Assembly (NCBI RefSeq): GCF_038502225.1
Contig: NC_091303.1
Coordinates: forward strand, 31,249,414-31,313,413
Direction: 5' to 3'
Source: Cherax quadricarinatus
Taxonomy: Eukaryota; Arthropoda; Malacostraca; Decapoda; Parastacidae
Length of the DNA: 64,000 nt
In this document: positions 16,703 to 56,319 of the stretch, one piece after another
Layout: the number at the start of each line of letters is the position of its first letter
Numbering within the stretch: position 1 is the first letter of the stretch
Program-made: the position numbers and the translations under genes
The notes under the pieces: model-generated
What the model saw: only the letters and a program-made list of their open reading frames with translations
Databases searched by the model: none
Told to the model about the DNA's origin: nothing

Positions 16703-17314
16703 GTCCGCTCCCACTTTTGCTAGCGTGTTGAAGAGCTTTCCAGTATGTGAAGGTTGAGGGTCAGTGCCAATCGGACAGGTACCGGACGGTAACGTCATTT
16801 GTTTACTCTTGAACATCGTCAAAGAATCAAACATTTCTGCTGCTTTGAGCTCATTTTCAAGGTACTTTTCATTATGAAACCAATCAAAATCATATCTATT
16901 TCTATAATATATCTTCCATTCTATAAAATGAGACCAAAAAAACGAGAATACAACCATAAAAGCCACATGAAAATATACCACTAATGGGAGGCTAATGGCT
17001 GAGAAGTGAACTCCATTATTTATGGTCTGATTTCTTTCATTTTTGGTGTATGTTAAGAAGCATCTTTCCATCATACATTGCCCAAGTTTCGATAAGATAG
17101 TCCAACAAACAAAAACTAAGATCAAAATCCCTAGATCAAGAGCAAGAGCCCCTCACCAACATCAAGGAACCTCCCTTGAGGCCCGCTCACATCTGGAAAT
17201 TTCGCTCGCGTCTGGAAGCAAAAAATCGACTGAGCAACTGCTCGTATCTGGAAAAACTCACACATGCGTGCACTCGTAAATAGAGGTTCCACTGTATTTA
17301 ACATGTTTACTGAG

Positions 17315-17424
17315 GTTCTCCATGGGGAAATGGAACAGAATTCTTCCTCCGTATGCCATGCGTGTCGTAAGAGGCTACTAAAATGCCAGGAGCAAGGGGC
17401 CAGTAACCCCTTCTCCTGTATATA
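17315..17424 (+). mobile_element. S element 6, left part
   Basis: 5'-truncated S element starting at TCTCCATGGGGAAATGG and running to CCTTCTCCTGTATATA, where a TIR element begins. It continues at 31519-31602. The target duplication is GTTTACTGAG (17305-17314) and CTTTACTGAG (31603-31612), an RTE-B ORF sequence. Confidence 0.75.
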
Positions 17425-17693
17425 CAGTAGGGCCACACTTATACGGCAGGTTAGGTTCCAGGCTACCGCTGTAAAGTGGAAACACCCTTTTTTTCCCTTA
17501 TAAATGCATACAAATACATATACTAGATAACAAGTTTACACTAATGTATACACCTACCATCCGACTTATGGCCTGCTTAACATACGATGACTCGATTTAC
17601 GACCGTGTTTTTTATGCCAAATTTCTGGGAAATAAACAAGTGTTTGTGTTGCACACAGTGTTTATCCTAAACTTTACAGTATAAAATACAGTA

Positions 17694-18503
17694 CAGTGGT
17701 CCCTCGTTTTTCGTAATTAATCCGTTCCTGGAGGAGCTACTATAAACGAAATTTACGATTTGCGAATCAATTTTCCCCATAAGAAATATAATGTAAATAC
17801 AATTAATCTGTTCCTGACACCCAGAAGTATTAAAACAAAAAAAAATTTTACATGAAATATACATGTAGTACATAAACAATACAATGGGAAATGATGAATA
17901 AAACATTAACAGCATAACACTTACCTTTATTGGAGATTCTTCTTAGTGTATGGGAGACTGGAGGAGGAGGAGAGAGATTGGATTGTTTACAGTTTGGAAG
18001 GGGAATCCCCTTCCAGCAACACCTCAGGTACCAATTGCTTCTCTTCTCTGTTTCTTAATGCCACTAGGACCACCTTGAGAGTCACTCTAGTCCTGTCTCG
18101 CAAAGTAACTGTGGAGAGAGCTCTGTTTCTGGCGTCTAACACTTCCCTAAAATGGCCCAAGACTTTGTCACTGTACATATTTCTCACCTTCTTTACCACA
18201 GGCTTGGCACTAGGAGCTTTCTTTGGAGCCATGGTAGCTTATTTAGTACTTGCAAGCACTAAAATGAGTGGAATATTATGAAATATTTCCTATTAGCACT
18301 TGAGGGGACCTTCACTCACTGGTAAACAATGTCAGACTGGCTGGGTAGGGAGGCCGCCTTGGCTCACACTGTGCGTACGCGTCCCGGACGAACTACTATT
18401 CGCGAGTCAACCTATGAAAAGTGAGTCCATGTTTATACGAAAATACCCCTATGATTGGCGAAATTTACGATTACCGAGAACTACGAAAAGCGAGGGACCA
18501 CTG
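17694..18503 (-). mobile_element. Tigger-like MITE with ORF remnant
   Basis: Termini CAGTGGTCCCTCGTTTTTCG and CGAAAAGCGAGGGACCACTG, flanked by TA. 810 bp. The minus strand retains an 81-aa frame joining the two ends of a Tigger-type transposase. Confidence 0.9.
17987..18232 (-). pseudogene. Tigger-type transposase remnant (ends only)
   Basis: 81-aa frame beginning MAPKKAPSAK, like the MGPKKASSAN start of the Tigger-like protein at 34558. It then passes directly to VRNMYSDKVLGHFREVLDAR, which parallels NLYTDNVVNHFRKVIKER at the C-terminal side of the other element. The DNA-binding and DDE catalytic regions are absent, so no activity is expected. The ORF remains open across the deletion. Confidence 0.75.
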
Positions 18504-18661
18504 TACTAACAACATAAAAAGTAAAGTAAAACATGAAATACCAAAATAAAACAATAAAATAAAGTCATTACAAAAATGTTATGTTGATATTCAGTAGTAA
18601 AGTTCGACTTACGTCCATTTCAACTTACGACCGAACTCGGTCGTAAGTCGGATGGTAGGTG

Positions 18662-19214
18662 TATTAAGTTAGCAATAGAACTAGGCATCAAAAAACAATA
18701 AGTACAATACACACATAGTGCACTCATTACTTAGCATAAAATATTTATAGTCTTAATCTAGGGTGAGATGAGTAGTATTTATTGTAAGAAATCAAGTGTG
18801 GTATGTATGGTAGTTAACTGGGCTACCATACCAGACCACCCCACCCACACATACTATTCTATGATATTTAAGCATCCCAGAGTGATAAAATGCATACACA
18901 GTTCACTCATTACTTACCTTAAAATATATGTAGTCTTAATGTAGGGTCATGGGTGAGTAAACGAGATAAAACGAATAAATGAGAGAGAGAGAGAGAATGA
19001 GTACACGAGGAAGGACAAGCACAGAGTTATGTAAACAAACCAGGCGAACACCAGTTTTGTAAACAAACAAAGTGTACACGTCTGGTTTGTGTACAAGTTA
19101 CATTGTGTACAAGTTGTCTCTACATTGATATGGTAGAATAAATAAAGAAGAACACTCCCATTCTCATGTAACACCGTTTTTAGAAGAAATGACGCTCTGA
19201 GTGAAGGCAATGGA
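18662..19214. repeat. Interior of CAGTAGGGCC-family element
   Basis: AT-rich sequence matching 58930-59500 of the compact copy (AGAACTAGGCATCAAAAA, TCATTACTTAGCATAAAATA). Contains a short GA run at 18979-18996. No gene. Confidence 0.75.
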
Positions 19215-19345
19215 AATAAGTCACTCTGTCTGACTTTTTTTGGGTTATCCTAGGTTCTCTACACATATGCTGTTATGTATGATAATCTATGTAACTTTAT
19301 TTGTGTATACCTGAATAAACTTACATACATACGAAAGGAATAATT
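19215..19345 (+). repeat. Dispersed repeat ending in ATACATAC
   Basis: TTATCCTAGGTTCTCTACAC block shared with 10330, continuing to CTGAATAAACTTACATACAT. Looks like the 3' end of an interspersed element. Class unknown. Confidence 0.5.
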
Positions 19346-19355
19346 TTCTACAGTT

Positions 19356-20156
19356 ACCCCCAGTAACAACAACAATTAACCATCTCAGACCACTAATTAC
19401 CCAACAAAAGGCTGCAGTTAGAATGATAACAAATTCTCACTACAGGCAGCACACTCCACCAATATTCAATACACTAAACCTACTCACCATACAAAACATC
19501 CATACTTATTACTGCACCTATTACATACATAGAACACTTAACTCTGATATTAACCCTCCCCTCAAACATCTCCTTGCCAACCTCAACAGAACACATGACC
19601 ATAACACAAGGCACAGATCACTCTTTGATGTTCCTCGTGTTCATCTCACACTATGCAAAAACTCAATGCACATAAAAGGCCCTAAAATCTGGAATTCATT
19701 ACCTGTAAATATAAAAGAAACACTACCTGTTTATAAATTCAAGTCTCTACTCAAAGATCACTTACTCACCCAAAACCAAATAAATACTGAATAACTGAAC
19801 CTTATAAATTGTATATCTTAAATGTTTCTCACAATTATATCACATAAATGTTAAACCTAAAACCGAATCTAACTTTATTATTTTTAAATACACTACCTTA
19901 CAGAATCCTTCATATGACCTGTCTTTGTAATACTCACTTGTGCTTTATAGTAATCTGTTTACATTAATGTTTTATCACTGACTTCATCATTGCTTAGTTA
20001 ATCTTAAGTTAATTTTAAGCCAGCCCGTAATGCTATGCATAGTATAAGTGGCTTTGGCATACTGCTCTTATCTGTATTTTTTTTTTTTGTACCTCTGTAT
20101 GTGTGCACAAATTTATAATAAATAAATAAATAAAATAAATAAATAAATAAATAAAT
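19356..20156 (+). mobile_element. Jockey-supergroup LINE 3' end
   Basis: The open frame from about 19366 to 19791 encodes INHLRPLITQQKAAVRM, then LRTHDHNTRH-like and KGPKIWNSLPVNIKE segments, typical of the region after the RT in CR1/Rex-type LINEs. It is followed by an AT-rich 3' UTR and an (ATAA)n tail (20118-20156). It interrupts the TIR element, whose sequence resumes at GTTAGATTAGAGAAAATG. Confidence 0.75.
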
Positions 20157-20452
20157 ATGTTAGATTAGAGAAAATGTTATTCTTGCTGTCACTTGTACAA
20201 GTTATCTGGCTATGACATCTAATATTTATGTTTATTTATTCTATTGTGGGGTGTATTTATCATCTTTATATGTTATGTATCGTGTTTATTATATAATTTT
20301 GAAAAAAATATCATGGATGGATTAATGAAAATGTGTATATTAACGTAATATATGACATTTAATGAGACTCGGTGATTATTATTATTATTATTATCATTTC
20401 TAATATGGCATCATTTGTGCAAGTCGTCTGGCTACCACATCTCATTTTTTTT
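20157..20452. repeat. TIR-element interior with a partial tandem duplication
   Basis: Matches 59555-59800 of the compact copy. After CTAATATGGCATCATTTG the sequence restarts at GTGCAAGTCGTCTGGCTACC, a diverged repeat of 20196, so a unit of about 210 bp was duplicated. The second unit is split by the RTE-A insertion and continues at 31009. Confidence 0.7.
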
Positions 20453-20696
20453 TATTAGCACACTGGCCGATTCCCACCAAGGCAGGGTGGCCCGAAAAAG
20501 AAAAGCTTTCACCATCATTCACTCCATCACTGTCTTGCCAGAAGGGTGCTTTACACTACAGTTTTTAAACTGCAACATTAACACCCCTCCTTCAGAGTGC
20601 AGGCACTGTACTTCCCATCTCCAGGACTCAAGTCCGGCCTGCCGGTTTCCCTGAATATCTTCATAAATGTTACTTTGCTCACACTCCAACAGCACG

Positions 20697-21413: not shown

Positions 21414-21417
21414 CTGT

Positions 21418-21857: not shown

Positions 21858-24800
21858 ATTATTTTTTTTATTATCACACCGGCCGATTCCCACCAAGGCA
21901 GGGTGGCCCGAAAAAGAAAAACTTTCACCATCATTCACTCCATCACTGTCTTGCCAGAAGGGTGCTTTACACTACAGTTTTTAAACTGCAACATTAACAC
22001 CCCTCCTTCAGAGTGCAGGCACTGTACTTCCCATCTCCAGGACTCAAGTCCGGCCTGCCGGTTTCCCTGAATCCCTTCATAAATGTTACTTTGCTCACAC
22101 TCCAACAGCACGTCAAGTATTAAAAACCATTTGTCTCCATTCACTCCTATCAAACACGCTCACGCATGCCTGCTGGAAGTCCAAGCCCCTCGCACACAAA
22201 ACCTCCTTTACCCCCTCCCTCCAACCCTTCCTAGGCCGACCCCTACCCCGCCTTCCTTCCACTACAGACTGATACACTCTTGAAGTCATTCTGTTTCGCT
22301 CCATTCTCTCTACATGTCCGAACCACCTCAACAACCCTTCCTCAGCCCTCTGGACAACAGTTTTGGTAATCCCGCACCTCCTCCTAACTTCCAAACTACG
22401 AATTCTCTGCATTATATTCACACCACACATTGCCCTCAGACATGACATCTCCACTGCCTCCAGCCTTCTCCTCGCTGCAACATTCATCACCCACGCTTCA
22501 CACCCATATAAGAGCGTTGGTAAAACTATACTCTCATACATTCCCCTCTTTGCCTCCAAGGACAAAGTTCTTTGTCTCCACAGACTCCTAAGTGCACCAC
22601 TCACTCTTTTTCCCTCATCAATTCTATGATTCACCTCATCTTTCATAGACCCATCCGCTGACACGTCCACTCCCAAATATCTGAATACGTTCACCTCCTC
22701 CATACTCTCTCCCTCCAATCTGATATTCAATCTTTCATCACCTAATCTTTTTGTTATCCTCATAACCTTACTCTTTCCTGTATTCACCTTTAATTTTCTT
22801 CTTTTGCACACCCTACCAAATTCATCCACCAATCTCTGCAACTTCTCTTCAGAATCTCCCAAGAGCACAGTGTCATCAGCAAAGAGCAGCTGTGACAACT
22901 CCCACTTTGTGTGTGATTCTTTATCTTTTAACTCCACGCCTCTTGCCAAGACCCTCGCATTTACTTCTCTTACAACCCCATCTATAAATATATTAAACAA
23001 CCACGGTGACATCACACATCCTTGTCTAAGGCCTACTTTTACTGGGAAAAAATTTCCCTCTTTCCTACATACTCTAACTTGAGCCTCACTATCCTCGTAA
23101 AAACTCTTCACTGCTTTCAGTAACCTACCTCCTACACCATACACTTGCAACATCTGCCACATTGCCCCCCTATCCACCCTGTCATACGCCTTTTCCAAAT
23201 CCATAAATGCCACAAAGACCTCTTTAGCCTTATCTAAATACTGTTCACTTATATGTTTCACTGTAAACACCTGGTCCACACACCCCCTACCTTTCCTAAA
23301 GCCTCCTTGTTCATCTGCTATCCTATTCTCCGTCTTACTCTTAATTCTTTCAATTATAACTCTACCATACACTTTACCAGGTACACTCAACAGACTTATC
23401 CCCCTATAATTTTTGCACTCTCTTTTATCCCCTTTGCCTTTATACAAAGGAACTATGCATGCTCTCTGCCAATCCCTAGGTACCTTACCCTCTTCCATAC
23501 ATTTATTAAATAATTGCACCAACCACTCCAAAACTATATCCCCACCTGCTTTTAACATTTCTATCTTTATCCCATCAATCCCGGCTGCCTTACCCCCTTT
23601 CATTTTACCTACTGCCTCACGAACTTCCCCCACACTCACAACTGGCTCTTCCTCACTCCTACAAGATGTTATTCCTCCTTGCCCTATACACGAAATCACA
23701 GCTTCCCTATCTTCATCAACATTTAACAATTTCTCAAAATATTCCTTCCATCTTCCCAATACCTCTAACTCTCCATTTAATAACTCTCCTCTCCTATTTT
23801 TAACTGACAAATCCATTTTTTCTCTAGGCTTTCTTAACTTGTTAATCTCACTCCAAAACTTTTTCTTATTTTCAACAAAATTTGTTGATAACATCTCACC
23901 CACTCTCTCATTTGCTCTCTTTTTACATTGCTTCACCACTCTCTTAACTTCTCTCTTTTTCTCCATATACTCTTCCCTCCTTGCATCACTTCTACTTTGT
24001 AAAAACTTCTCATATGCTAACTTTTTCTCCCTTACTACTCTCTTTACATCATCATTCCACCAATCGCTCCTCTTCCCTCCTGCACCCACTTTCCTGTAAC
24101 CACAAACTTCTGCTGAACACTCTAACACTACATTTTTAAACCTACCCCATACCTCTTCGACCCCATTGCCTATGCTCTCATTAGCCCATCTATCCTCCAA
24201 TAGCTGTTTATATCTTACCCTAACTGCCTCCTCTTTTAGTTTATAAACCTTCACCTCTCTCTTCCCTGATGCTTCTATTCTCCTTGTATCCCATCTACCT
24301 TTTACTCTCAGTGTAGCTACAACTAGAAAGTGATCTGATATATCTGTGGCCCCTCTATAAACATGTACATCCTGAAGTCTACTCAACAGTCTTTTATCTA
24401 CCAATACATAATCCAACAAACTACTGTCATTTCGCCCTACATCATATCGTGTATACTTATTTATCCTCTTTTTCTTAAAATATGTATTACCTATAACTAA
24501 ACCCCTTTCTATACAAAGTTCAATCAAAGGGCTCCCATTATCATTTACACCTGGCACCCCAAACTTACCTACCACACCCTCTCTAAAAGTTTCTCCTACT
24601 TTAGCATTCAAGTCCCCTACCACAATTACTCTCTCACTTGGTTCAAAGGCTCCTATACATTCACTTAACATCTCCCAAAATCTCTCTCTCTCCTCTGCAT
24701 TCCTCTCTTCTCCAGGTGCATACACGCTTATTATGACCCACTTCTCGCATCCAACCTTTACTTTAATCCACATAATTCTTGAATTTACACATTCATATTC

Positions 24801-25450
24801 TCTTTTCTCCTTCCATAACTGATCATTTAACATTACTGCTACCCCTTCCTTTGCTCTAACTCTCTCAGATACTCCAGATTTAATCCCATTTATTTCCCCC
24901 CACTGAAACTCTCCTACCCCCTTCAGCTTTGTTTCGCTTAGGGCCAGGACATCCAACTTCTTTTCATTCATAACATCAGCAATCATCTGTTTCTTGTCAT
25001 CCGCACTACATCCACGCACATTTAAGCAACCCAGTTTTATAAAGTTTTTCTTCTTCTCTTTTTTAGTAATTGTATACAGGAGAAGGGGTTACTAGCCCAT
25101 TGCTCCCGGCATTTTAGTCGCCTCATACGACACGCATGGCTTACGGAGGAAAGATTCTTTTCCACTTCCCCATGGACAATAGAAGAAATAAAAAAGAACA
25201 AGAGCTATTTAGAAAAAGGAGAAAAACCTAGATGTATGTATATATATATATGCATGTGCGTGTCTGTGAAGTGTGACCAAAGTGTAAGTAGGAGTAGCAA
25301 GATATCCCTGTTATCTTAGCGTGTTTATGAGACAGAAAAAGAGACCAGCAATCCTACCATCATGCAAAACAGTTACAGGTTTTTGTTTCACAGTCATCTG
25401 GCAGGACGGTAGTACTTCCCTGGGTGGTTGCTGTCTACCAACCTACTACC
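21858..25450 (-). mobile_element. RTE-A retrotransposon, full length, ORF unbroken
   Basis: 3' tail (TAATAAAAAAAA on the minus strand) at about 21858, 3' UTR with GGGCCACCCTGCCTTGGTGG, ORF to 25019, and a 5' UTR to TAGGTAGTAGGTTGGTAGAC at about 25450. Inserted in the older RTE-A copy between TTACAA and AACCCCATC, with no more than a few bases of target duplication. Confidence 0.9.
22113..25019 (-). CDS. RTE-A polyprotein: APE endonuclease + reverse transcriptase
   Basis: 968 codons from the GTG at 25019. The endonuclease nicks target DNA and the RT copies the element RNA at the nick (target-primed reverse transcription, established for RTE elements). Motifs: SETKL with catalytic Glu 29; GDLNAK 135-140; SDH 228-230; RT core FMDLEKAYD 605-613, GLRQGCVMSP 663-672, FADD 713-716; Arg-rich tail GRGRPRKGW near 920-930. 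No stop or frameshift is present. The frame extends upstream without an ATG (LGCLNVRG, which carries the conserved endonuclease Asn); the first in-frame ATG is residue 12, inside the endonuclease. Near-identical sequence at 51886-53548 and 62322-64000 suggests recent activity. Length is usual for RTE ORFs. Confidence 0.93.
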   Translation of the reverse strand: MRGCSADDKKQMIADVMNEKKLDVLALSETKLKGVGEFQWGEINGIKSGVSERVRAKEGVAVMLNDQLWKEKREYECVNSRIMWIKVKVGCEKWVIISVYAPGEERNAEERERFWEMLSECIGAFEPSERVIVVGDLNAKVGETFREGVVGKFGVPGVNDNGSPLIELCIERGLVIGNTYFKKKRINKYTRYDVGRNDSSLLDYVLVDKRLLSRLQDVHVYRGATDISDHFLVVATLRVKGRWDTRRIEASGKREVKVYKLKEEAVRVRYKQLLEDRWANESIGNGVEEVWGRFKNVVLECSAEVCGYRKVGAGGKRSDWWNDDVKRVVREKKLAYEKFLQSRSDARREEYMEKKREVKRVVKQCKKRANERVGEMLSTNFVENKKKFWSEINKLRKPREKMDLSVKNRRGELLNGELEVLGRWKEYFEKLLNVDEDREAVISCIGQGGITSCRSEEEPVVSVGEVREAVGKMKGGKAAGIDGIKIEMLKAGGDIVLEWLVQLFNKCMEEGKVPRDWQRACIVPLYKGKGDKRECKNYRGISLLSVPGKVYGRVIIERIKSKTENRIADEQGGFRKGRGCVDQVFTVKHISEQYLDKAKEVFVAFMDLEKAYDRVDRGAMWQMLQVYGVGGRLLKAVKSFYEDSEAQVRVCRKEGNFFPVKVGLRQGCVMSPWLFNIFIDGVVREVNARVLARGVELKDKESHTKWELSQLLFADDTVLLGDSEEKLQRLVDEFGRVCKRRKLKVNTGKSKVMRITKRLGDERLNIRLEGESMEEVNVFRYLGVDVSADGSMKDEVNHRIDEGKRVSGALRSLWRQRTLSLEAKRGMYESIVLPTLLYGCEAWVMNVAARRRLEAVEMSCLRAMCGVNIMQRIRSLEVRRRCGITKTVVQRAEEGLLRWFGHVERMERNRMTSRVYQSVVEGRRGRGRPRKGWREGVKEVLCARGLDFQQACVSVFDRSEWRQMVFNT

Positions 25451-25870
25451 TATAACCCCATCTATAAATATATTAAACAACCACGGTGACATCACACATC
25501 CTTGTCTAAGGCCTACTTTTACTGGGAAATAATCTCCCTCTTTCCTACATACTCTAACTTGAGCCTCACTTTCCTTGTAAAAACTCTTCACTGCTTTCAG
25601 TAACCTACCTCCTATACCATACACCTGCAACGTCTGCCACATTGCCCCCCTATCCACCCTGTCATATGCCTTTTCCAAATCCATAAATGCCACAAAAACC
25701 TCTTTAGCCTTATCTAAATACTGTTCACTTATATGTTTCACTGTAAACACCTGGTCCACACACCCCCTACCTTTCCTAAAGCCTCCTTGTTCATCTGCTA
25801 TCCTATTCTCCGTCTTACTCTTAATTCTTTCAATAATAACTCTATCATACACTTTACCAGGTATACTCAA
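25394..25870 (-). pseudogene. Older RTE-A copy, RT core piece
   Basis: Encodes SIPGKVYDRV, FMDLEKAYDRV and GLRQGCVMSP up to FNIFIDGV, where the full-length RTE-A copy begins at about 25450. The last codons of the open frame run into that copy's 5' UTR and are not genuine. Upstream it stops at the S element insertion. Confidence 0.85.
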
Positions 25871-25877
25871 CAGACTT

Positions 25878-26074
25878 CTTTCTTTCTTTCAACACACCGG
25901 CCGTATCCCACTGAGGCGGGGTAGCCCAAAAGGAAAAACAAAAGCTTCTCCTTTTAAATTTAGTAATATATACAGGAGAAGGGGTTACTAGACCCTTGCT
26001 CCTGGCATTTTAGTCGCCTCTTACAACACGCATGGCTTACGGAGGAAGAATTCTGTTCCACTTCCCCATGGAGG
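25878..26074 (-). mobile_element. S element 5 (5'-truncated)
   Basis: S element 3' tip (TTGAAAGAAAGAAAG as read on the minus strand) through the 5' UTR-derived part to CCTCCATGGGG. Target duplication ACTCAACAGACTT at 25865-25877 and 26075-26087. It sits in the ISLLS codons of the older RTE-A ORF, in the same orientation. Confidence 0.85.
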
Positions 26075-26087
26075 ACTCAACAGACTT

Positions 26088-29000
26088 ATTTTATTATTTA
26101 TTATCACACTGGCCGATTCCCACCAAGGCAGGGTGGCCCGAAAAAGAAAAACTTTCACCATCATTCACTCCATCACTGTCTTGCCAGAAGGGTGCTTTAC
26201 ACTACAGTTTTTAAACTGCAACATTAACACCCCTCCTTCAGAGTGCAGGCACTGTACTTCCCATCTCCAGGACTCAAGTCCGGCCTGCCGGTTTCCCTGA
26301 ACCCCTTCATAAATGTTACTTTGCTCACACTCCAACAGCACGTCAAGTATTAAAAACCATTCATCTCCATTCACTCCTATCAAACACGCTCACGCACGCC
26401 TGCTGGAAGTCCAAGCCCCTCGCACACAAAACCTCCTTTACCCCCTCCCTCCAACCTTTCCTAGGCCAACCCCTATCCCGCCTTTCTTCCACTACAGACT
26501 GATACACTCTTGAAGTCATTCTGTCTCGCTCCATTCTCTCTACATGTCTGAACCACCTCAACAACCCTTCCTCAGCCCTCTGGACAACAGTTTTGGTAAT
26601 CCCGCACCTCCTCCTAACTTCCAAACTATGAATTCTCTGCATTATATTCACACCACACATTGCCCTCAGACATGACATCTCCACTGCCTCCAGCCTTCTC
26701 CTCGCTGCAACATTCATCACCCATGCTTCACACCCATATAAGAGCGTTGGTAAAACTATACTCTCATACATTCCCCTCTTTGCCTCCAAGGACAAAGTTC
26801 TTTGTCTCCACAGACTCCTAAGTGCACCACTCACCCTTTTCCCCTCATCAATTCTATGATTCACCTCATCCTTCATAGACCCATCCGCTGACACGTCCAC
26901 TCCCAAATATCTGAATACATTCACCTCCTCCATACTCTCTCCCTCCAATCTGATATCCAATCTTTCATCACCTAATCCTTTTGTTATCCTCATAACCTTA
27001 CTCTTTCCTGTATTCACTTTTAATTTTCTTCTTTTGCACGCCCTACCAAATTCATCCACCAATCTCTGCAACTTCTCATCAGAATCTCCCAAGAGCACAG
27101 TGTCATCAGCAAAGAGCAACTGTGACAACTCCCACTTTATGTGTGATTCTTTATCTTTTAACTCCACGCGTCTTGTCAAGACCCTCGCATTTACTTCTCT
27201 CACAACCCGATCTATAAATATATTAAACAACCATGGTGACATCACACATCCTTGTCTAAGGCCTACTTTTACTGGGAAATAATTTCCCTCTTTCCTACAC
27301 ACTCTAACTTGAGCCTCACTATCCTTGTAAAAACTCTTCACTGCTTTCAGTAACCTACCTCTTACACCATACACCTGCAACATCTGCCACATTGCCCCCC
27401 TATCCACCCTGTCATATGCCTTTTCCAAATCCATAAATGCCACAAAGACCTCTTTAGCCTTATCTAAATACTGTTCACTTATATGTTTCACTGTAAACAC
27501 CTGATCCACACACCCCCTACCTTTCCTAAAGCCTCCTTGTTCATCTGCTATCCTATTCTCTGTCTTGCTCTTAATTCTTTCAATAATAACTCTACCATAC
27601 ACTTTACCAGGTATACTCAACAGACTTATCCCCCTATAATTTTTGCACTCTCTTTTGTCCCCTTTGCCTTTATACAAAGGAACTATGCATGCTCTCTGCC
27701 AATCCCTAGGCACCTTACCCTCTTCCATACATTTATTAAATGATAACACCAACCACTCCAAAACTATATCCCCACCTGCTTTTAACATTTCTATCTTTAT
27801 CCCATCAATCTCGGCTGCTTTACCCCCTTTCATTTTACCTACTGCCTCACGAACTTGCCCCACACTCACAACTGGCTCTTCCTCACTCCTACAAGATGTT
27901 ATTCCTCCTTGCCCTATACACGAAATCACAGATTCCCTATATTCATCAACATTTAACAATTCCTCAAAATATTCCCTCCATCTTCCCAATACCTCTAACT
28001 CTCCATTTAATAACTCTCCTCTCCTATTTTTAACTGACAAATCCATTTGTTCTCTAGGATTCCTTAACTTGTTAATCTCACTCCAAAACTTTTTCTTATT
28101 TTCAACAAAATTTGTTGATAACATCTCACCCACTCTCTCATTTGCTCTCTTTTTACATTGCTTCACCACTCTCTTAACCTCGCTCTTTTTCTCCACATAC
28201 TCTTCCCTCCTTGCATCACTTCTACTTTGTAAAAACTTCTCATATGCTAACTTTTTCTCCCTTACTATTCTCTTTATATCATCATTCCACCAATCGCTCC
28301 TCTTCCCTCCCGCACCCACTTTCCTGTAACCACAAACTTCTGCTGAACACTCTAACACTACATTTTTAAACCTAGCCCATACCTCTTCGACCCCATTGCC
28401 TATGCTCTCATTAGCCCATCTATCCTCCAATAGCTGTTTATATTTTACCCTAACTGCCTCCTCTTTTAGTTTATAAATCTTCACCTCTCTTTTCCCTGAT
28501 GCTTCTATTCTCCTTGTACCCCATCTACCTTTTACTCTCAGTGTAGCTACAACTAAAAAGTGATCTGATATATCTGTGGCCCCTCTATAAACATGTACAT
28601 CCTGAAGTCTACTCAACAGTCTTTTATCTACCAATACATAATCCAACAAACTACTGTCATTTTGCCCTACATCATATCTTGTATACTTATTTATCCTCTT
28701 TTTCTTAAAATATGTATTACCTATAACTAAACCCCTTTCTATACAAAGTTCAATCAAAGGGCTCCCATTATCATTTACACCTGGCACCCCAAACTTACCT
28801 ACCACACCCTCTCTAAAAGTTTCTCCTACTTTAGCATTTAGGTCCCCTACAACAATTACTCTCTCACTTGGTTCAAAGGCTCCTATACATTCACTTAACA
28901 TCTCCCAAAATCTCTCTCTCTCCTCTGCATTCCTCTCTTCTCCAGGTGCATACACGCTTATTATGACCCACTTCTCGCATCCAACCTTTACTTTAATCCA

Positions 29001-29693
29001 CATAATTCTTGCATTTACACATTCATATTCTCTTTTCTCCTTCCATAACTGATCATTCAACATTACTGCTACCCCTTCCTTTGCTCTAACTCTCTCAGAT
29101 ACTCCAGATTTAATCCCATTTATTTCCCCCCACCGAAACTCCCCTACCCCCTTCAGCTTTGTTTTGCTTAGGGCCAGGACATCCAACTTCTTTTCATTCA
29201 TAACATCAGCAATCATCTGTTTCTTGTCATCCGCACTACATCCACGCACATTCAAGCATCCCAGTTTTATAAAGTTTTTCTTCTTCTCTTTTTTAGTAAA
29301 TGTTTACAGGAGAAGGGGTTACTAGCCCATTGCTCCCGGCATTTTAGTTGCCTCATACGACACGCATGGCTTACGGAGGAAAGATTCTTTTCCACTTCCC
29401 CATGGACAATAGAAGAAATAAAGAAGAACAAGAGCTATTTAGAAAAAGGGGAAAAACCTAGATGTATGTATATATATATGCATGTGCGTGTCTGTGAAGT
29501 GTGACCAAAGTGTAAGTAGGAGTAGCAAGATATCCCTGTTATCTTGCATGTTTATGAGACAGAAAAAGAAACCAGCAATCCTACCATCATGCAAAACAGT
29601 TTCAGGTTTCTGTTTCACAGTCATCTGGCAGGATGGTAGTACTTCCCTGGGTGGTTGCTGTCTACCAACCTACCAACCTGTCTACCAACCTAC
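26088..29693 (-). mobile_element. RTE-A retrotransposon, full length
   Basis: Same organisation as the copy at 21858-25450, with an (A)ATAATAAATAATAAAA tail and a 5' UTR ending near 29693. It is flanked by direct repeats of about 130 bp (25956-26088 and 29694-29823) made of S element 5 plus its RTE junction, so the insertion seems to have split S element 5 with a very long target duplication. Confidence 0.88.
26361..29255 (-). CDS. RTE-A polyprotein, nearly full length
   Basis: 964-codon open frame from TTG at 29255 (NVRGCSADD). Same endonuclease and RT motifs as the intact copy (GDLNAK, FMDLEKAYD, GLRQGCVMSP, LLFADD). It ends five codons early at FDRSEWR because a CAA codon is TGA. Substitutions at conserved places include SKTKL for SETKL, which removes the catalytic Glu of the endonuclease, so the copy is probably unable to nick DNA although its frame is open. 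Like the others it has no in-frame ATG before the endonuclease core. Confidence 0.88.
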   Translation of the reverse strand: MNVRGCSADDKKQMIADVMNEKKLDVLALSKTKLKGVGEFRWGEINGIKSGVSERVRAKEGVAVMLNDQLWKEKREYECVNARIMWIKVKVGCEKWVIISVYAPGEERNAEERERFWEMLSECIGAFEPSERVIVVGDLNAKVGETFREGVVGKFGVPGVNDNGSPLIELCIERGLVIGNTYFKKKRINKYTRYDVGQNDSSLLDYVLVDKRLLSRLQDVHVYRGATDISDHFLVVATLRVKGRWGTRRIEASGKREVKIYKLKEEAVRVKYKQLLEDRWANESIGNGVEEVWARFKNVVLECSAEVCGYRKVGAGGKRSDWWNDDIKRIVREKKLAYEKFLQSRSDARREEYVEKKSEVKRVVKQCKKRANERVGEMLSTNFVENKKKFWSEINKLRNPREQMDLSVKNRRGELLNGELEVLGRWREYFEELLNVDEYRESVISCIGQGGITSCRSEEEPVVSVGQVREAVGKMKGGKAAEIDGIKIEMLKAGGDIVLEWLVLSFNKCMEEGKVPRDWQRACIVPLYKGKGDKRECKNYRGISLLSIPGKVYGRVIIERIKSKTENRIADEQGGFRKGRGCVDQVFTVKHISEQYLDKAKEVFVAFMDLEKAYDRVDRGAMWQMLQVYGVRGRLLKAVKSFYKDSEAQVRVCRKEGNYFPVKVGLRQGCVMSPWLFNIFIDRVVREVNARVLTRRVELKDKESHIKWELSQLLFADDTVLLGDSDEKLQRLVDEFGRACKRRKLKVNTGKSKVMRITKGLGDERLDIRLEGESMEEVNVFRYLGVDVSADGSMKDEVNHRIDEGKRVSGALRSLWRQRTLSLEAKRGMYESIVLPTLLYGCEAWVMNVAARRRLEAVEMSCLRAMCGVNIMQRIHSLEVRRRCGITKTVVQRAEEGLLRWFRHVERMERDRMTSRVYQSVVEERRDRGWPRKGWREGVKEVLCARGLDFQQACVSVFDRSEWR

Positions 29694-29755
29694 AAATTTA
29701 GTAATATATACAGAAGGGGTTACTAGACCCTTGCTCCTGGCATTTTAGTCGCCTC

Positions 29756-31000
29756 TTACAACACGCATGGCTTACGGAGGAAGAATTCTGATCCACTTCC
29801 CCATGGAGGACTCAACAGACTTATCCTCCTGTAATTTTTGCACTCTCTTTTGTCCCCTTTGCCTTTATACAAAGGAACTATGCATGCTCTCTGCCAATCC
29901 CTAGGCACCTTACCCTCTTCCATACATTTATTAAATGATAACACCAACCACTCCAAAACTATATCCCCACCTGCTTTTAACATTTCTATCTTTAGCCCAT
30001 CAATCTCGGCTGCTTTACCCCCTTTCATTTTACCTACTGCCTCACGAACTTGCCCCACACTCACAACTGGCTCTTCCTCACTCCTACAAGATGTTATTCC
30101 TCCTTGCCCTATACACGAAATCACAGATTCCCTATATTCATCAACATTTAACAATTCCTCAAAATATTCCCTCCATCTTCCCAATACCTCTAACTCTCCA
30201 TTTAATAACTCTCCTCTCCTATTTTTAACTGACAAATCCATTTGTTCTCTAGGCTTCCTTAACTTGTTAATCTCACTCCAAAACTTTTTCTTATTTTTAA
30301 CAAAATTTGTTGATAACATCTCACCCACTCTCTCATTTGCTCTCTTTTTACATTGCTTCACCACTCTCTTAACCTCTCTCTTTTTCTCCACATACTCTTC
30401 CCTCCTTGCATCACTTCTACTTTGTAAAAACTTCTCATATGCTAACTTTTTCTCCCTTACTATTCTCTTTACATCATCATTCCACCAATCGCTCCTCTTC
30501 CCTCCCGCACCCACTTTCCTGTAACCACAAACTTCTGCTGAACACTCTAACACTACATTTTTAAACCTAGCCCATACCTCTTCGACCCCATTGCCTATGC
30601 TCTCATTAGCCCATCTATCCTCCAATAGCTGTTTATATTTTACCCTAACTGCCTCCTCTTTTAGTTTATAAATCTTCACCTCTCTTTTCCCTGATGCTTC
30701 TATTCTCCTTGTATCCCATCTACCTTTTACTCTCAGTGTAGCTACAACTAAAAAGTGTTCTGATATATCTGTGGCCCCTCTATAAACATGTACATCCTGA
30801 AGTCTACTCAACAGTCTTTTATCTACCAATACATAATCCAACAAACTACTGTCATTTTGCCCTACATCATATCTTGTATACTTATTTATCCTCTTTTTCT
30901 TAAAATATGTATTACCTATAGCTAAACCCCTTTCTATACAAAGTTCAATCAAAGGGCTCCCATTATCATTTACACCTGGCACCCCAAACTCACCTACCAC
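29756..31000 (-). pseudogene. Older RTE-A copy, N-terminal piece
   Basis: From GEFGVPGVNDNGS in the endonuclease through SLLDYVLVDKR, the linker, and RT start (AAEIDGLKIEM, PLYKGKGDKREC) to ISLLS. 5' end truncated at about 31008. SDH is SEH here. After ISLLS the open frame continues into duplicated S-element sequence and is not genuine. Confidence 0.85.
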
Positions 31001-31008
31001 ACCCTCTC

Positions 31009-31518: not shown

Positions 31519-31602
31519 TATTAATGTAAAAGGAGAAACTTTCATTTTTCCTTTTGGGCCACCCCACTTTGGTGGGATACCACCAGTGTGTTGAAAGAAG
31601 AA
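31519..31602 (+). mobile_element. S element 6, right part
   Basis: TTAATGTAAAAGGAGAAACT, then TTTTGGGCCACCCCACTTTG and GTGTGTTGAAAGAAG, the S/RTE 3' tip. It directly abuts ACTTTACTGAGTATACCAGG of an RTE-B ORF. Confidence 0.8.
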
Positions 31603-41064: not shown

Positions 41065-41065
41065 G

Positions 41066-45781: not shown

Positions 45782-45792
45782 TGAATGAAAAT

Positions 45793-47802: not shown

Positions 47803-47810
<8 letters not shown>

Positions 47811-47840
<30 letters not shown>

Positions 47841-50121
47841 GTCGGCCGTCTCCCACCGAGGCAGGGTGACCCAAAAAAGAAAGAAAATCCCCAAAAAGAA
47901 AATACTTTCATCATCATTCAACACTTTCACCACACTCGCACATTATCACTGTTTTTGCAGAGGTGCTCAGAATACAACAGTCTAGAAGCATACACATATG
48001 AAGATACACAACATATCCCTCCAAACTGCCAATATCCCAAAACCCCTCCTTTAAAGTGCAGGCATTGTACTTCCCATTTCCAGGACTCAAGTCCGACTAT
48101 ATGAAAATAACCGGTTTCCCTGAATCCCTTCACTAAATATTACCCTGCTCACACTCCAACAGATCGTCAGGTCCCAAGTACCATTCGTCTCCATTCACTC
48201 CTATCTAACACGCTCATGCACGCTTGCTGGAAGTCCAAGCCCCTTGCCCACAAAACCTCCTTTACCCCCTCTCTCCAACCCTTTCGAGGACGACCCCTAC
48301 CCCGCCTTCCTTCCCCTATAGATTTATATGCTTTCCATGTCATTCTACTTTGATCCATTCTCTCTAAATGACCAAACCACCTCAACAACCCCTCTTCTGC
48401 CCTCTGACTAATACTTTTATTAACTCCACACCTTCTCCTAATTTCCACACTCCGAATTTTCTGTAAAATATTTACACCACACATTGCCCTTAAACAGGAC
48501 ATCTCCACTGCCTCCAACCGTCTCCTCGCTACTGCATTTACCACCCAAGCTTCACACCCATATAAGAGTGTTGGTACTACTATACTTTCATACATTCCCT
48601 TCTTTGCCTCCATAGATAACGTTTTTTGACTCCACATATACCTCAAAGCACCACTCACCTTTTTTCCCTCATCAATTCTATGATTAACCTCATCCTTCAT
48701 AAATCCATCCGCCGACACGTCAACTCCCAAGTATCTGAAAACATTCACTTCTTCCATACTCCTCCTCCCCAATTTGATATCCAATTTTTCTTTATCTAAA
48801 TCATTTGACACCCTCATCACCTTACTCTTTTCTATGTTCACTTTCAACTTTCTACCTTTACACACATTCCCAAACTCTTCCACTAACCTTTGCAATTTTT
48901 CTTTAGAATCTCCCATAAGCACAGTATCATCAGCAAAAAGTAACTGTGTCAATTCCCATTTTGAATTTGATTCCCCAAAATTTAATCCCACCCCTCTCCC
49001 GAACACCCTAGCATTTACTTCCTTTACAACCCCATCTATAAATATATTAAACAACCATGGTGACATTACACATCCCTGTCTAAGACCTACTTTTACCGGG
49101 AAGTAGTCTCCCTCTCTTCTACACACCCTAACCTGAGCCTCACTATCCTCATAAAAACTCTTTACAGCATTTAATAACTTACCACCTATTCCATATACTT
49201 GCAACATCTGCCACATTGCTCCTCTATCCACTCTATCATATGCCTTTTCTAAATCCATAAATGCAATAAAAACTTCCCTACCTTTATCTAAATACTGTTC
49301 ACATATATGCTTCAATGTAAACACTTGATCTACACATCCCCTACCCACTCTGAAACCTCCTTGCTCATCCGCAATCCTACATTCTGTCTTACCTCTAATT
49401 CTTTCAAATATAACCCTACCATACACTTTTCCTGGTATACTCAATAAGCTTATTCCTCTATAATTTTTACAGTCTCTTTTGTCCCCTTTCCCTTTATATA
49501 AAGGGACTATACATGCTCTCCGCCAATCCCTAGGTACCTTCCCCTCTTTCATACATTTATTAAACAAAAGTACCAACCACTCCAACACTATATCCCCCCC
49601 TGCTTTTAACATTTCTGTCATGATCCCATCAGTTCCAGCTGCTTTACCCCCTTTCATTTTACGTAATGCCTCACGTACCTCCCCCACACTTACATTCTGC
49701 TCTTCTTCACTCCTAAAAGATGGTATACCTCCCTGACCAGTGCATGAAATTACTGCCTCTGTTTCTTCCTTAACATTTAAAAGTTCCTCAAAATATTCTC
49801 GCCATCTACCCAATACCTCCATCTCCCCATCTACTAACTCCCCTACTCTGTTTTTAACTGACAAATCCATATTTTCCCTAGGCTTTCTTAACTTGTTTAA
49901 CTCACTCCAAAATTTTTTCTTATTTTCATTAAAATTTCTTGACAGTGCCTCTCCCACTCTATCATCTGCTCTCCTTTTGCACTCTCTCACCACTCTCTTT
50001 ACCTTTCTTTTACTCTCCATATACTCTGCTCTTCTTATAACACTTCTGCTTTGTAAAAACCTCTCATAAGCTACCTTTTTCTCTTTTATCACACCCTTTA
50101 CTTCATCATTCCACCAATCAA
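47811..50121 (-). mobile_element. RTE-B copy nested antisense in RTE-B
   Basis: Begins with an 18-24 nt A-tract (T-run on +), 3' UTR with CCACCGAGGCAGGGTGACCC, and open coding sequence up to DWWNDEVKG at about 50121, where it is truncated. The target duplication ATCAAAT is at 47803-47810 and across the 50121 junction. Confidence 0.9.
48167..50121 (-). CDS. RTE-B RT, long open frame (endonuclease missing)
   Basis: About 650 codons from DWWNDEVKGVIKEKK to [13 protein letters not shown] and stop. RT motifs: AAGTDGIMTEM, PLYKGKGDKRDCKNY, FMDLEKAYDRV, GLRQGCVMSP, LLFADDTVLMGD; C-terminal GRGRPRKGW. No frameshift or stop, so a young insertion, but the endonuclease half was lost on insertion and there is no promoter. 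The open frame continues upstream into flanking RTE-B antisense sequence ([10 protein letters not shown]), which is not part of the protein. Confidence 0.85.
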
Positions 50122-51511: not shown

Positions 51512-51885
51512 TTAAGGGCAATGTGTGGTGTAAATATTATGCAGAAAATTCGGAGTGTGGAAATTAGGAAAAGGTGTGGAGTTAATAAAAGTATTAGTCA
51601 GAGGGCAGAAGAGGGGTTGTTGAGGTGGTTTGGTCATTTAGAGAGAATGGATCAAAGTAGAATGACATGGAAAGCATATAAATCTATAGGGGGAGGAAGG
51701 CGGGGTAGGGGTCGTCCTCGACAGGGTTGGAGAGAGGGGGTAAAGGAGGTTTTGTGGGCAAGGGGCTTGGACTTCCAGCAAGCGTGCGTGAGCTTGTTAG
51801 ATAGGAGTGAATGGAGACGAATGGTACTTGGGACCTGACGATCTGTTGGAGTGTGAGCAGGGTAATATTTAGTGAAGGGATTCAG

Positions 51886-53299
51886 TGGTTGGTGCAATTA
51901 TTTAATAAATGTATGGAAGAGGGTAAGGTACCTAGGGATTGGCAGAGAGCATGCATAGTTCCTTTGTATAAAGGCAAAGGGGATAAAAGAGAGTGCAAAA
52001 ATTATAGGGGGATAAGTCTGTTGAGTGTACCTGGTAAAGTGTATGGTAGAGTTATAATTGAAAGAATTAAGAGTAAGACGGAGAATAGGATAGCAGATGA
52101 ACAAGGAGGCTTTAGGAAAGGTAGGGGGTGTGTGGACCAGGTGTTTACAGTGAAACATATAAGTGAACAGTATTTAGATAAGGCTAAAGAGGTCTTTGTG
52201 GCATTTATGGATTTTGGAAAAGGCGTATGACAGGGTGGATAGGGGGGCAATGTGGCAGATGTTGCAAGTGTGTGGTGTAGGAGGTAGGTTACTGAAAGCA
52301 GTGAAGAGTTTTTACGAGGATAGTGAGGCTCAAGTTAGAGTATGTAGGAAAGAGGGAAATTTTTTCCCAGTAAAAGTAGGCCTTAGACAAGGATGTGTGA
52401 TGTCACCGTGGTTGTTTAATATATTTATAGATGGGGTTGTAAGAGAAGTAAATGCGAGGGTCTTGGCAAGAGGCGTGGAGTTAAAAGATAAAGAATCACA
52501 CACAAAGTGGGAGTTGTCACAGCTGCTCTTTGCTGATGACACTGTGCTCTTGGGAGATTCTGAAGAGAAGTTGCAGAGATTGGTGGATGAATTTGGTAGG
52601 GTGTGCAAAAGAAGAAAATTAAAGGTGAATACAGGAAAGAGTAAGGTTATGAGGATAACAAAAAGATTAGGTGATGAAAGATTGAATATCAGATTGGAGG
52701 GAGAGAGTATGGAGGAGGTGAACGTATTCAGATATTTGGGAGTGGACGTGTCAGCGGATGGGTCTATGAAAGATGAGGTGAATCATAGAATTGATGAGGG
52801 AAAAAGAGTGAGTGGTGCACTTAGGAGTCTGTGGAGACAAAGAACTTTGTCCTTGGAGGCAAAGAGGGGAATGTATGAGAGTATAGTTTTACCAACGCTC
52901 TTATATGGGTGTGAAGCGTGGGTGATGAATGTTGCAGCGAGGAGAAGGCTGGAGGCAGTGGAGATGTCATGTCTGAGAGCAATGTGTGGTGTGAATATAA
53001 TGCAGAGAATTCGTAGTTTGGAAGTTAGGAGGAGGTGCGGGATTACCAAAACTGTTGTCCAGAGGGCTGAGGAAGGGTTGTTGAGGTGGTTCGGACATGT
53101 AGAGAGAATGGAGCGAAACAGAATGACTTCAAGAGTATATCAGTCTGTAGTGGAAGGAAGGCGGGGTAGGGGTCGGCCTAGGAAGGGTTGGAGGGAGGGG
53201 GTAAAGGAGGTTTTGTGTGCGAGGGGCTTGGACTTCCAGCAGGCATGCGTGAGCGTGTTTGATAGGAGTGAATGGAGACAAATGGTTTTTAATACTTGA
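51886..53299 (+). pseudogene. RTE-A RT, one frameshift
   Basis: RT and C-terminal region of RTE-A. An extra T in ATGGATTTTGGAAAAGG (about 52210) shifts frame in the FMDLEKAYD motif; otherwise it is open to the stop at 53297-53299. Motifs: [53 protein letters not shown]. It belongs to the SVPGK variant shared with 22113-25019 and 62322-64000. Confidence 0.9.
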
Positions 53300-53548
53300 C
53301 GTGCTGTTGGAGTGTGAGCAAAGTAACATTTATGAAGGGATTCAGGGAAACCGGCAGGCCGGACTTGAGTCCTGGAGATGGGAAGTACAGTGCCTGCACT
53401 CTGAAGGAGGGGTGTTAATGTTGCAGTTTAAAAACTGTAGTGTAAAGCACCCTTCTGGCAAGACAGTGATGGAGTGAATGATGGTGAAAGTTTTTCTTTT
53501 TCGGGCCACCCTGCCTTGGTGGGAATCGGCCGGTGTGATAATAAAAAA
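51886..53548 (+). mobile_element. RTE-A copy, 5'-truncated, young
   Basis: Inserted in the RTE-B 3' UTR with duplication ATTCAG. Starts at WLVQLFNKCMEEGK and runs through the 3' UTR to GTGATAATAAAAAA. Over about 290 bp it is identical by eye to 63712-64000. Confidence 0.92.
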
Positions 53549-54551
53549 ATTCAGGGAAACCGGTTATTTTCATATAGTCGGACTTGAGTCCTGGAAATGG
53601 GAAGTACAATGCCTGCACTTTAAAGGAGGGGTTTGGGATATTGGCAGTTTGAACGGATATGTTGTGTATCTTTATATATGTATGTTTCTAACCTGTTGTA
53701 TTCTGAGTACCTCTGCAAAAACAGTGATAATGTGTGAGTGTGGTGAAAGTGTTGAATGATGATGAAAGTATTTTCTTCTTGGGGATTTTCTTTTTTTTTT
53801 GGGTCACCCTGCCTCGGTGGGAGACGGCCGACTTGTTGAAAAAAAAAAAAATCACTACTTCCATACTCCCTCTCTCCAATGTGATATCCAGTTTTTATTT
53901 ATTTATATCATTTGATACTCTTATCACCTTACTCTTATCTATGTTAACTTTCAACTTTCTACCTTCACACACCTTCCCAAACAAGTCCACTAACCTTTGT
54001 AACTTTTCTTTAGAATCTCCCAAAAGTACAGTATCATCAGCAAAAATTGACTGTGTCAACTCCCATTTTGTATTTGATTCCCCATAATTTAATCCCACCC
54101 CACTCCCCAACACCCTAGCATTTACTTCTTTTACAACCCCATCTATAAATATATTAACCAAGGTGACATTACACATCCTTGTCTAAGACCTACTTTTACC
54201 GGGAAGTAATCTCCCTCTCTCCTACACACCCTAACCTGAGCCTCACTATCCTCATAAGAACTCTTTACAGCATTTAATAATGTACTACCTATTCCATATA
54301 CTTGCAAAATCTGTTACATTGCTCCCCTATCCACTCTATCATATGCCTTTTCTAAATCCATAAATGCAATGAAAACTTCCCTACCTTTATCAAATACTGT
54401 TCACATATATGCTTCAGTGTAAACACTTGATCTACACATCCTCTACCCACTCTAAAGCCTCCTTGCTCATCTGCAATTCTGCTCTGTTTTACCTCTAATT
54501 CTTTTAATAATAACCCTATCATACACTTTACCTGGTATACTCAGTAAACTT

Positions 54552-55019
54552 CTTTCTTTCAACACACTGGCCGTATCCCACCGATGCAGGGTGGCCTAAA
54601 AAGAAAAAGGAAAGTTTCTCTTTTTAACTTTAGTAATGTATACAGGAGAAGGGGTTACCAGCCCCTTGCTCCTGGCATTTTAGTCGCCTCTTATGACACC
54701 CATGGCTTACGGAGGAAGAATTATGTTCCACTTCCCCATGGGGATAAGAGGAAATAAACAAGAAGAAGAACTAGAATGAAAATAGAAGAAAACCCAGAGG
54801 GGTGTGTATATATATGCTTGTACATGTATGTGTAGTGTGACCTAAGTGTAAGTAGAAGTAGCAAAATGTACCTGAAATCTTGCATGTTTATGAGACAGAA
54901 AAAAAGACACCAGCAATCCTACCATCATGTAAAACAATTACAGGTTTCCGTTTTACACTCACTTGGCAGGACTGTAGTACCTCCCTGGGCGGTTGCTGTC
55001 TACCAACCTACTACCTACA
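54552..55019 (-). mobile_element. S element 3, complete
   Basis: 468 bp; 3' tip GTGTGTTGAAAGAAAG next to AAGTTTACTGA; 5' end GTAGGTAGTAGGTTGGTAGA. Flanked by TCAGTAAACTT at 54541-54551 and 55020-55030. Confidence 0.9.
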
Positions 55020-55030
55020 TCAGTAAACTT

Positions 55031-55484
55031 CTTTCTTTCTTTCTTTCAACACACCAGCCGTATCCCACCGAGGCGGGGTGGCCCAAAAGGAAAAACGAAA
55101 GTTTCTCCTTTTACATTTAGTAATATATACAGGAGAAGAGGTTACTAGCCCCTTGCTCCCGGCATTTTAGTCGCCTCTTACAACACGCATGGCTTACGGA
55201 GGAAGAATTCTGTTCCACTTCCCCATGGAGATAAGAGGAAATAAACAAGAATAAGAACTAGAAAGAAAATAGAAGAAAACCCAGAGGGGTGTGTATATAT
55301 GTGCTTGTACATGTATGTGTAGTGTGACCTAAGTGTAAGTAGAAGTAGCAAGACGTACCTGAAATCTTGCATGTTCATGAGACAGAAAAAAGGACACCAG
55401 CAATCCTACCATCATGTAAAACAATTACAGGCTTTCGTTTTACACTCACTTGGCAGGACGGTAGTACCTCCCTGGGCGGTTGCA
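55031..55484 (-). mobile_element. S element 4, slightly 5'-truncated
   Basis: Directly follows S element 3, separated only by one TCAGTAAACTT; the third copy of that duplication is at 55485-55495. Truncated at CAACCGCCCAGG. Same orientation as S element 3. Confidence 0.9.
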
Positions 55485-56319
55485 TCAGTAAACTTATTCC
55501 CCTATAATTTTTACAATATCTTTTGTCTCCCTTCCCTTTATATAAAGGAACTATACACACTCTCTGCCAATCCCTAGGCACCTTACCCTCTTTCATACAT
55601 TTATTAAAAAATGCCAACCACTCCAACACTATATCATCCCCTGCATTTAACATTCTGTCTTGGTCCTATCAGTTCCAGCTGCTTTACCCCCTTTCATTCT
55701 ATGCAATGCCTCATGCACCTCCCCCACACTTACATCCTACTCTTCTTCATTTCTAAAAGGTGTTATTCCCCCCTGGCTAGTACATGAAATTACCGCCTCC
55801 CATTCTTCATCGACATTTAAAAGTTCCTCAAAATATTCCCGGCATCTACCCAATACCTCCAACTCCCCATCTAATAACTCCCCTATCCTGTTTTTAACTG
55901 ACAAATCCATTCGTTCCCTAGGCTTTCTTAACTTGTTTATCTTACTCCAAAATTTTTTTTCTATTCTCAGCAGAATTTCTTGGCAGTCCCTCTTCCACTC
56001 TATCATTTGCTCTCTTTTAGCACTCTCACCACTCTCTTCACCTTTCATTTACTCTCCATATAGTCTGCCCTTCTTTTATCACATCTGCTTTGTAAAAACC
56101 TCTCATAAACTATCTTTTTCTCATTCATCACACCCTTTACTTCATCATTCCACCAGTTACTCCTCTTTTCTCCTGCACGCACGTTCCTATAGCCACGAAC
56201 TTCTGCCCCACATTCTAATACTGCATTTTTAAAACTATCCCATCCCTCTTCAATTCCCCCCCCCCCCCCCAATTACCCATACTTGCACTAGCCCACTTTT
56301 CTGCCAATAGTTGCTTATA

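What the first reader, a model, noticed from the sequence alone, without database searches (positions are those of the whole stretch)
17305..55495. S elements repeatedly occupy one nucleotide position in RTE ORFs
Four of the six S copies (S3 and S4 at 54552-55484, S5 at 25878-26074, S6 at 17315/31602) lie in the ISLLS codons of RTE ORFs. Every one has its 3' tip against AAGT(C/T)TG/AC-TGAG and runs in the ORF direction. The hosts belong to two subfamilies (RTE-A for S5, RTE-B for S3/S4/S6). Copies at 1-3730, 22113-25019, 26361-29255, 47811-50121 and 51886-53548 are uninterrupted there. Either the S element has a sequence-specific target inside its parent's ORF, or a chimeric RTE carrying S at that site is itself propagating. 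The first would be a non-autonomous parasite that disables its own helper.
Basis: partly seen in the sequence, partly recalled or inferred. Interest (0 to 1): 0.82.

Follow-up and report, generated by a model that had tools for sequence, protein, structure and literature searches.

The report
Retrotransposon hotspot inside its own gene
A very abundant jumping element in a large, probably crustacean, genome keeps landing, together with a small parasite derived from it, at one exact spot inside its own gene, which breaks the copies it hits.

Summary
S3, S4 and S5 (and, less surely, S6) have their 3' tip at one position of the RTE ORF, AT^AAGTYTRYTGAG, with 11-13 bp target-site duplications (TSDs).
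Genome-wide (3.95 Gb), exact patterns find the S tip at this site 178 times, the RTE tip 155 times, and 38,246 uninterrupted sites. A control stretch about 80 bp downstream gave no real S junction. Near-identical hosts carry S copies with different 5' junctions or tails: repeated targeting, not one chimeric lineage.
The site is not exclusive: 2 of 60 context-unselected S copies lie there; 17 of 60 lie in TA repeats. Twenty other S insertions give the T-run-then-T^A signature published for RTE-clade elements, and by it the site ranks 4th-9th of thousands of positions in the element. Best reading: an ordinary endonuclease preference with an unusually good match in its own ORF, hit by the element and its parasite alike. 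Three to eight positions score higher and could not be counted, so extra specificity stays open.

The parts
54552..55017 (-). S3, near full-length S element; TSD AAGTTTACTGA; probably inserted before S4
55031..55482 (-). S4, S element in tandem with S3 at the same site; flanked by AAGTTTACTGATG on both sides, which favours insertion into the 5' copy of S3's TSD
53852..54551 (-). host RTE-B ORF, part downstream of the site
55496..56251 (-). host RTE-B ORF, part upstream of the site (blast match runs on into the TSD to 55492)
25878..26074 (-). S5, 5'-shortened S element; TSD AAGTCTGTTGAGT
26088..29693 (-). full-length RTE-A inserted at the same nucleotide, into the 5' TSD copy of S5; ORF 26361-29255
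29694..29822 (-). left copy of the roughly 130-bp TSD of that RTE (site plus start of S5)
25956..26087 (-). right copy of the same TSD (overlaps S5)
29823..31008 (-). host RTE-A ORF, part upstream of the site
25454..25877 (-). host RTE-A ORF, part downstream of the site
31523..31601 (+). right piece of S6, tip at the RTE-B site (ACTTTACTGAG)
17317..17424 (+). putative left piece of S6, preceded by GTTTACTGAG; joining it to 31523 is inferred

Best explanation
The repeats are an RTE-type non-LTR retrotransposon (one ORF with endonuclease and reverse transcriptase) and a short non-autonomous derivative, S, made of RTE-like 5'UTR and 3'-end sequence. The RTE endonuclease (inferred agent) prefers a T-run about 10-12 bases upstream of a purine-T^A/G step. 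The ISLLS codons of the RTE's own ORF (AAAATTATAGGGGGAT^AAGTCTGTTGAGT) are a very good match. The strand opposite the coding strand is nicked at T^A, the element RNA is reverse transcribed from there, and a duplication of usually 12-14 bp results (these steps are inferred from junctions and general knowledge of target-primed reverse transcription). The duplication leaves the upstream context on the 5' copy only, so a second element can land at the 5' copy: certain for the S5/RTE nest, likely for S3/S4. The effect is repeated independent disruption of RTE copies by S and by the RTE itself.
For: 178 exact S-tip and 155 exact RTE-tip junctions at the one position, reversed-pattern controls 0; control stretch about 80 bp downstream: 1 match, which is RTE ORF sequence, so no real S junction, with a control word of similar frequency. 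Of 30 S-at-site loci, 26 have an upstream copy of the site within 900 bp; in 21 of the 26 the TSD is perfect over 12-14 bp, in 5 it carries mismatches. Those 26 show 17 different 5' junctions; of 52 pairs with closely similar hosts, 50 differ in junction or tail, and all 12 pairs at 99% or more differ in junction. Twenty non-site S insertions: T at -12/-11/-10 in 70/80/75%, T at -1 in 90%, A at +1 in 85%; by that matrix the site ranks 5 of 7118, 4 of 7178 and 9 of 4132. The signature matches the Tn-TA signature of Bov-B, plant RTE elements and their SINEs (PMC13295347: abstract, passages, section 17). The TSD of the nested RTE contains the start of S5, so the RTE came second, at the 5' copy.
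Against: The matrix rests on 20 hand-picked sites; 4, 3 and 8 other positions score higher in the three RTE copies, and their S counts could not be obtained. If those are rarely hit, the short signature does not explain the hotspot. RTE target sites outside the ORF were not sampled, so the shared signature is inferred from S. The site itself has only TT at -12/-11. Only one control stretch was answered. Only exact matches were counted, and a few listed junction pairs (C14:36085498/36087041, C7:58135629/58138327, C24:621930/645044) could be later duplications, so 155 and 178 need not all be independent events. 4 of 30 loci showed no TSD in reach.
Confidence: 0.68

Rival explanations
1. The RTE enzyme has a longer, specific recognition of its own ORF site beyond the T-run/T^A signature, that is, true self-targeting on top of weak general preference.
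For: 178 and 155 hits at one position against no real S junction at a downstream control; three to eight other positions score higher by the short signature, yet in the context-unselected S copies none of them was hit more than once.
Against: The short signature alone already ranks the site in the top 9 of thousands of positions; 58 of 60 context-unselected S copies are elsewhere. The unselected sample is too small to compare positions.
Confidence: 0.24
2. One or a few chimeric RTE copies carrying S at this site are propagating and account for the repeated position.
For: Some host and S pairs are both nearly identical, e.g. L038/L050 (host 0.990/0.992, S 0.996); host identity correlates weakly with S identity (rho 0.30); 2 of 52 close pairs share junction and tail.
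Against: All 12 pairs of hosts at 99% or more have different 5' junctions; those 2 of 52 pairs have S only 0.935-0.938 identical; hosts span two subfamilies; the RTE uses the site too. That an interrupted RTE would have to move in trans is an inference.
Confidence: 0.04
3. The excess is only a by-product of RTE abundance: any frequent sequence collects insertions, and the site is not preferred over other RTE positions.
For: 38,246 exact sites exist, and other RTE positions are also hit (reference positions 1143, 1935, 2803, 2906; antisense 2030; and L116).
Against: The control stretch has no real S junction within up to 30 free bases, and 2 of 60 unselected S copies fall on this single nucleotide.
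Confidence: 0.04

Closest known systems
Bov-B LINE / Sauria SINE and plant RTE LINE/SINE pairs with the Tn-TA insertion signature (PMC13295347: abstract, passages, section 17)
   Same: T-run about one helical turn upstream of a T^A first-strand nick; LINE and its SINE share it; 3' ends with microsatellite-like repeats; SINE copies start about 12 bases after the nick
   Different: There such LINEs are spoken of as having indiscriminate integration sites; here one signature match lies in the element's own ORF and is hit hundreds of times
ingi/RIME of Trypanosoma brucei (PMC2323293: passages)
   Same: RIME keeps the ends of the LINE with the central coding part deleted, as S does; a T-rich motif lies upstream of the related elements; relative site specificity
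   Different: A trypanosomatid pair; nothing in the passages seen describes insertion into the partner's ORF
SR3 and other RTE-clade elements (PMC1291365: passages)
   Same: RTE-type element with 10-12 bp TSDs and AT-rich targets
   Different: Described as having no tight target specificity; no self-hotspot in the passages seen
Nested plant LTR retrotransposons that target specific regions of other elements (PMC6911290: search listing only)
   Same: Transposons recurrently inserted in particular regions of other transposons
   Different: LTR elements with another integration mechanism; regions, as far as the listing shows, rather than one nucleotide of the own ORF
Strictly site-specific non-LTR elements such as R2 and R4 (named in PMC1291365 passages; otherwise recalled)
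   Same: Repeated use of one nucleotide in a multicopy target
   Different: Those live almost wholly in the target; here 2 of 60 unselected S copies do

Membership tests
RTE clade of non-LTR retrotransposons | single ORF with endonuclease and reverse transcriptase, no ORF1 | tested here: met
   RVT_1 and Exo_endo_phos in ORFs 22113-25019 and 26361-29255; no ORF of 150 aa or more between the 5' end and the ORF of the 29693-26088 copy
RTE clade of non-LTR retrotransposons | phylogenetic placement of the RT among RTE elements | not tested
RTE clade of non-LTR retrotransposons | Tn-TA insertion signature | tested here: met
   From 20 S insertions, not from RTE insertions themselves
SINE with small-RNA-derived head (tRNA/7SL/5S) | small-RNA-derived 5' head | tested here: not met
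   S 10-377 aligns to the RTE 5'UTR at 82-84%; no tRNA gene by ARAGORN with bacterial settings; no Rfam match at gathering score in the window
SINE with small-RNA-derived head (tRNA/7SL/5S) | transcription by RNA polymerase III | not testable with these tools
   no expression data
RIME-like deletion derivative of a LINE | 5' and 3' ends shared with the LINE, coding centre absent | tested here: met
   S 10-377 to RTE 5' part; S 392-458 to RTE 3' ends at 80-82%, and S3 to the RTE-A 3' end at 87% over 47 bases; an RTE parent with a GAAA tail was not identified
Site-specific non-LTR retrotransposon | most copies at one target | tested here: not met
   2 of 60 context-unselected S copies at the site; not measured for the RTE

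The most novel reading that the evidence does not exclude
The ORF site is a maintained self-target: a retrotransposon that limits its own active copy number by nicking its own gene at a conserved codon position, with the non-autonomous S exploiting the same site, so that helper and parasite share one built-in brake.
Probability: 0.1. Interest if true: 0.85.

Novelty: new variant of a known kind. Interest (0 to 1): 0.5.

Why it matters
It gives a natural, many-times-repeated record of where one LINE machinery inserts, at nucleotide resolution, in a target that is itself the element. The junctions allow direct measurement of endonuclease preference, order of nested insertions and TSD length, and they raise a testable question about whether a LINE can damp its own activity by self-targeting. 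If it is only an incidental signature match, it still warns against reading nested or chimeric copies as new composite families.

Tried and rejected
Chimeric RTE lineage as main cause: disfavoured by different junctions in near-identical hosts. S as a tRNA-derived SINE: not supported. HDV-like ribozyme at the 5' end (a GGUAGUA/UACUACC stem is predicted, but the fold is not better than many shuffles, z -1.39): no Rfam match at gathering score in the window, and on 25200-25520 only two weak plus-strand matches (GAIT, mir-297; E 2.6 and 3.3, far below gathering); left aside. The piece at 29694-29808 as a separate S insertion: rejected, it shares S5's letters over about 130 bases and ends where the nested RTE begins. 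Other decapod genomes: not searched; G000 has no relatives held.

Not obtained because the genome search stayed busy: S counts at the two other high-scoring positions, the genome-wide number of the control word and the total of RTE tips. The total of the 14-base S tip used was planned but never asked; the 5517 is for a longer 24-base tip, so 178 of 5517 is not a true fraction. An RTE-tip control at the downstream stretch was also planned and not asked. The control word's frequency was estimated from the window and unselected loci, which include L001, a piece of the window.

Rows dropped before counts: one search listed 29 sites; the matrix uses 19 of them plus L071. Dropped were L001 and L073 (the site itself), L002 twice and L083 (simple repeats), L009, L019 and L022 (S inside S-like sequence), L025 (RTE antisense, close to the site; it fits the signature) and L067 (tandem S). 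One search also printed unclear TSDs (such as L076, L079, L080, L082, L087, L093, L096, L098) that were not used. L005 and L075 lie in RTE-like sequence and were kept; L005 is an RTE-B position, which is circular for that position. The unselected S sample is rows 1-30, 31-50 and 91-100 of the 100 listed, all on contig C1: 60 of 5517.
Full report
What the sequence shows. The window lies in a eukaryotic-sized assembly of 3.95 Gb. A crustacean host is likely; the species is not known. The two RTE ORFs tested have endonuclease and reverse transcriptase domains. S aligns over positions 10-377 with the RTE 5'UTR at 82-84% and over 392-458 with RTE 3' ends at 80-82%, so it looks like a LINE deletion derivative with a GAAA-type tail, while the RTE copies end in AATAAA-like tails.

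The site in the window. The coding strand reads GGGGGAT^AAGTCTGTTGAGTATACC in RTE-A and GAGGAAT^AAG(T/C)TTA(C/T)TGAGTATACC in RTE-B. S5 has a TSD of AAGTCTGTTGAGT and S3 of AAGTTTACTGA. S4 is flanked on both sides by AAGTTTACTGATG; the two extra shared bases favour S4 as the later insertion, at the 5' copy of the site, but two bases could agree by chance, so that order is likely and not certain. The RTE at 29693-26088 also joins its 3' tail to AAGTCTGTTGAGT. Its TSD is about 130 bp and contains the start of S5, so it came second and used the 5' copy. S6 is probable, but its left half lies in other sequence 14 kb away.

Genome-wide counts by exact pattern. S tip, 0-20 free bases, then AAGTYTRYTGAGTRTACC: 178 matches, reversed-pattern control 0. 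RTE tip, 0-25 free bases, same site: 155, control 0. Uninterrupted site with upstream ORF context: 38,246, control 0. A 24-base form of the S tip: 5517, control 0. A stretch of the same ORF about 80 bp downstream, with 0-30 free bases after the S tip: 1 match, which is RTE ORF sequence and not an S junction. That control word is about as frequent as the site word in the window and unselected loci: 13 against 16 exact, 25 against 23 with up to two mismatches. Only one control stretch was answered, and none for the RTE tip. These are exact-match counts, so they miss diverged copies; a few listed pairs may be later duplications of one event.

Independence. Of the 30 fetched S-at-site loci (30 of 178), 26 have an upstream copy of the site within 900 bp: 21 with a perfect TSD of 12-14 bp, 5 with mismatches; four have none in reach. 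One (L056) has an RTE-like tail just before its left TSD, which may be another nested case. The 26 show 17 different 5' junctions and 22 combinations of junction and tail. Of 52 pairs with closely similar hosts, 50 differ in junction or tail; all 12 pairs with hosts at least 99% identical on both flanks differ in junction. A weak correlation of host and S identity remains (rho 0.30), as related copies of about the same age would also give.

How exclusive it is. In 60 S copies not chosen by context, 2 were at the site (L073, and L077, where the site is followed by another S), 17 lay in TA repeats, and a few were elsewhere in RTE sequence. So S is not a site-specific element, and the 4 of 6 seen in this window is a local excess.

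Why this site. Twenty other S insertions with TSDs show T at -12 to -10 and T^A at the nick. That is the Tn-TA signature reported for Bov-B, plant RTE elements and their SINEs (PMC13295347; abstract, passages and section 17). Scored with a matrix from those 20 sites, the ISLLS site ranks 5 of 7118, 4 of 7178 and 9 of 4132 positions in three RTE copies. After an insertion only the 5' TSD copy keeps the upstream context, which fits the order seen in the S5/RTE nest and probably in S3/S4. I therefore take the hotspot as an incidental strong match of the element's own endonuclease signature, used by RTE and S alike. The endonuclease step is inferred; there is no biochemical evidence here.

What stays open. 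Four, three and eight positions score higher than ISLLS in the three copies, and their hit counts could not be obtained. If they are cold, a longer recognition of the site is needed, which would be the more novel case. On checking the calls I found more higher-scoring positions than I first wrote and a less certain S3/S4 order; for these I lowered the best explanation from 0.72 to 0.68 and raised the longer-recognition rival from 0.20 to 0.24.

Literature. I searched for RTE target sites, self-insertion and own-copy targeting and for crustacean repeats. In the titles and abstract openings listed I saw no RTE element with a hotspot in its own ORF; PMC6911290 (listing only) reports nested plant LTR elements that target specific regions of other elements. 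This is limited to open-licence papers and to these terms. PMC10454600 (passages) reports recent LINE and SINE activity in Procambarus, which is compatible but does not identify this host. PMC1291365 (passages) says that L1 TSDs can reach several hundred bases, so a 130-bp TSD is unusual but not without precedent.

Noticed in passing
window 29822-29694 and 26087-25956: An RTE insertion with a TSD of about 130 bp, ten times longer than the usual 12-14 bp, at the hotspot.
   Followed up: partly
L009, L019: S tips joined to the 5' end of another S or RTE (ggtagt^AGGTTGG, ggttggt^AGACAGC), possibly a second self-hotspot that makes tandem S arrays.
   Followed up: no
L067/L068: A tandem S pair at another site (GACTTCTAAACT) in what looks like a different RTE 3'UTR, similar in build to S3/S4.
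   Followed up: no
window 25431-25480 and other RTE/S 5' ends: The 5' end GGTAGTA...TACTACC can form a 7-bp stem at the very 5' terminus; Rfam finds no known ribozyme.
   Followed up: partly
L061-L120: 17 of 60 context-unselected S copies sit at TA repeats, so S may favour or mark dinucleotide repeats.
   Followed up: no
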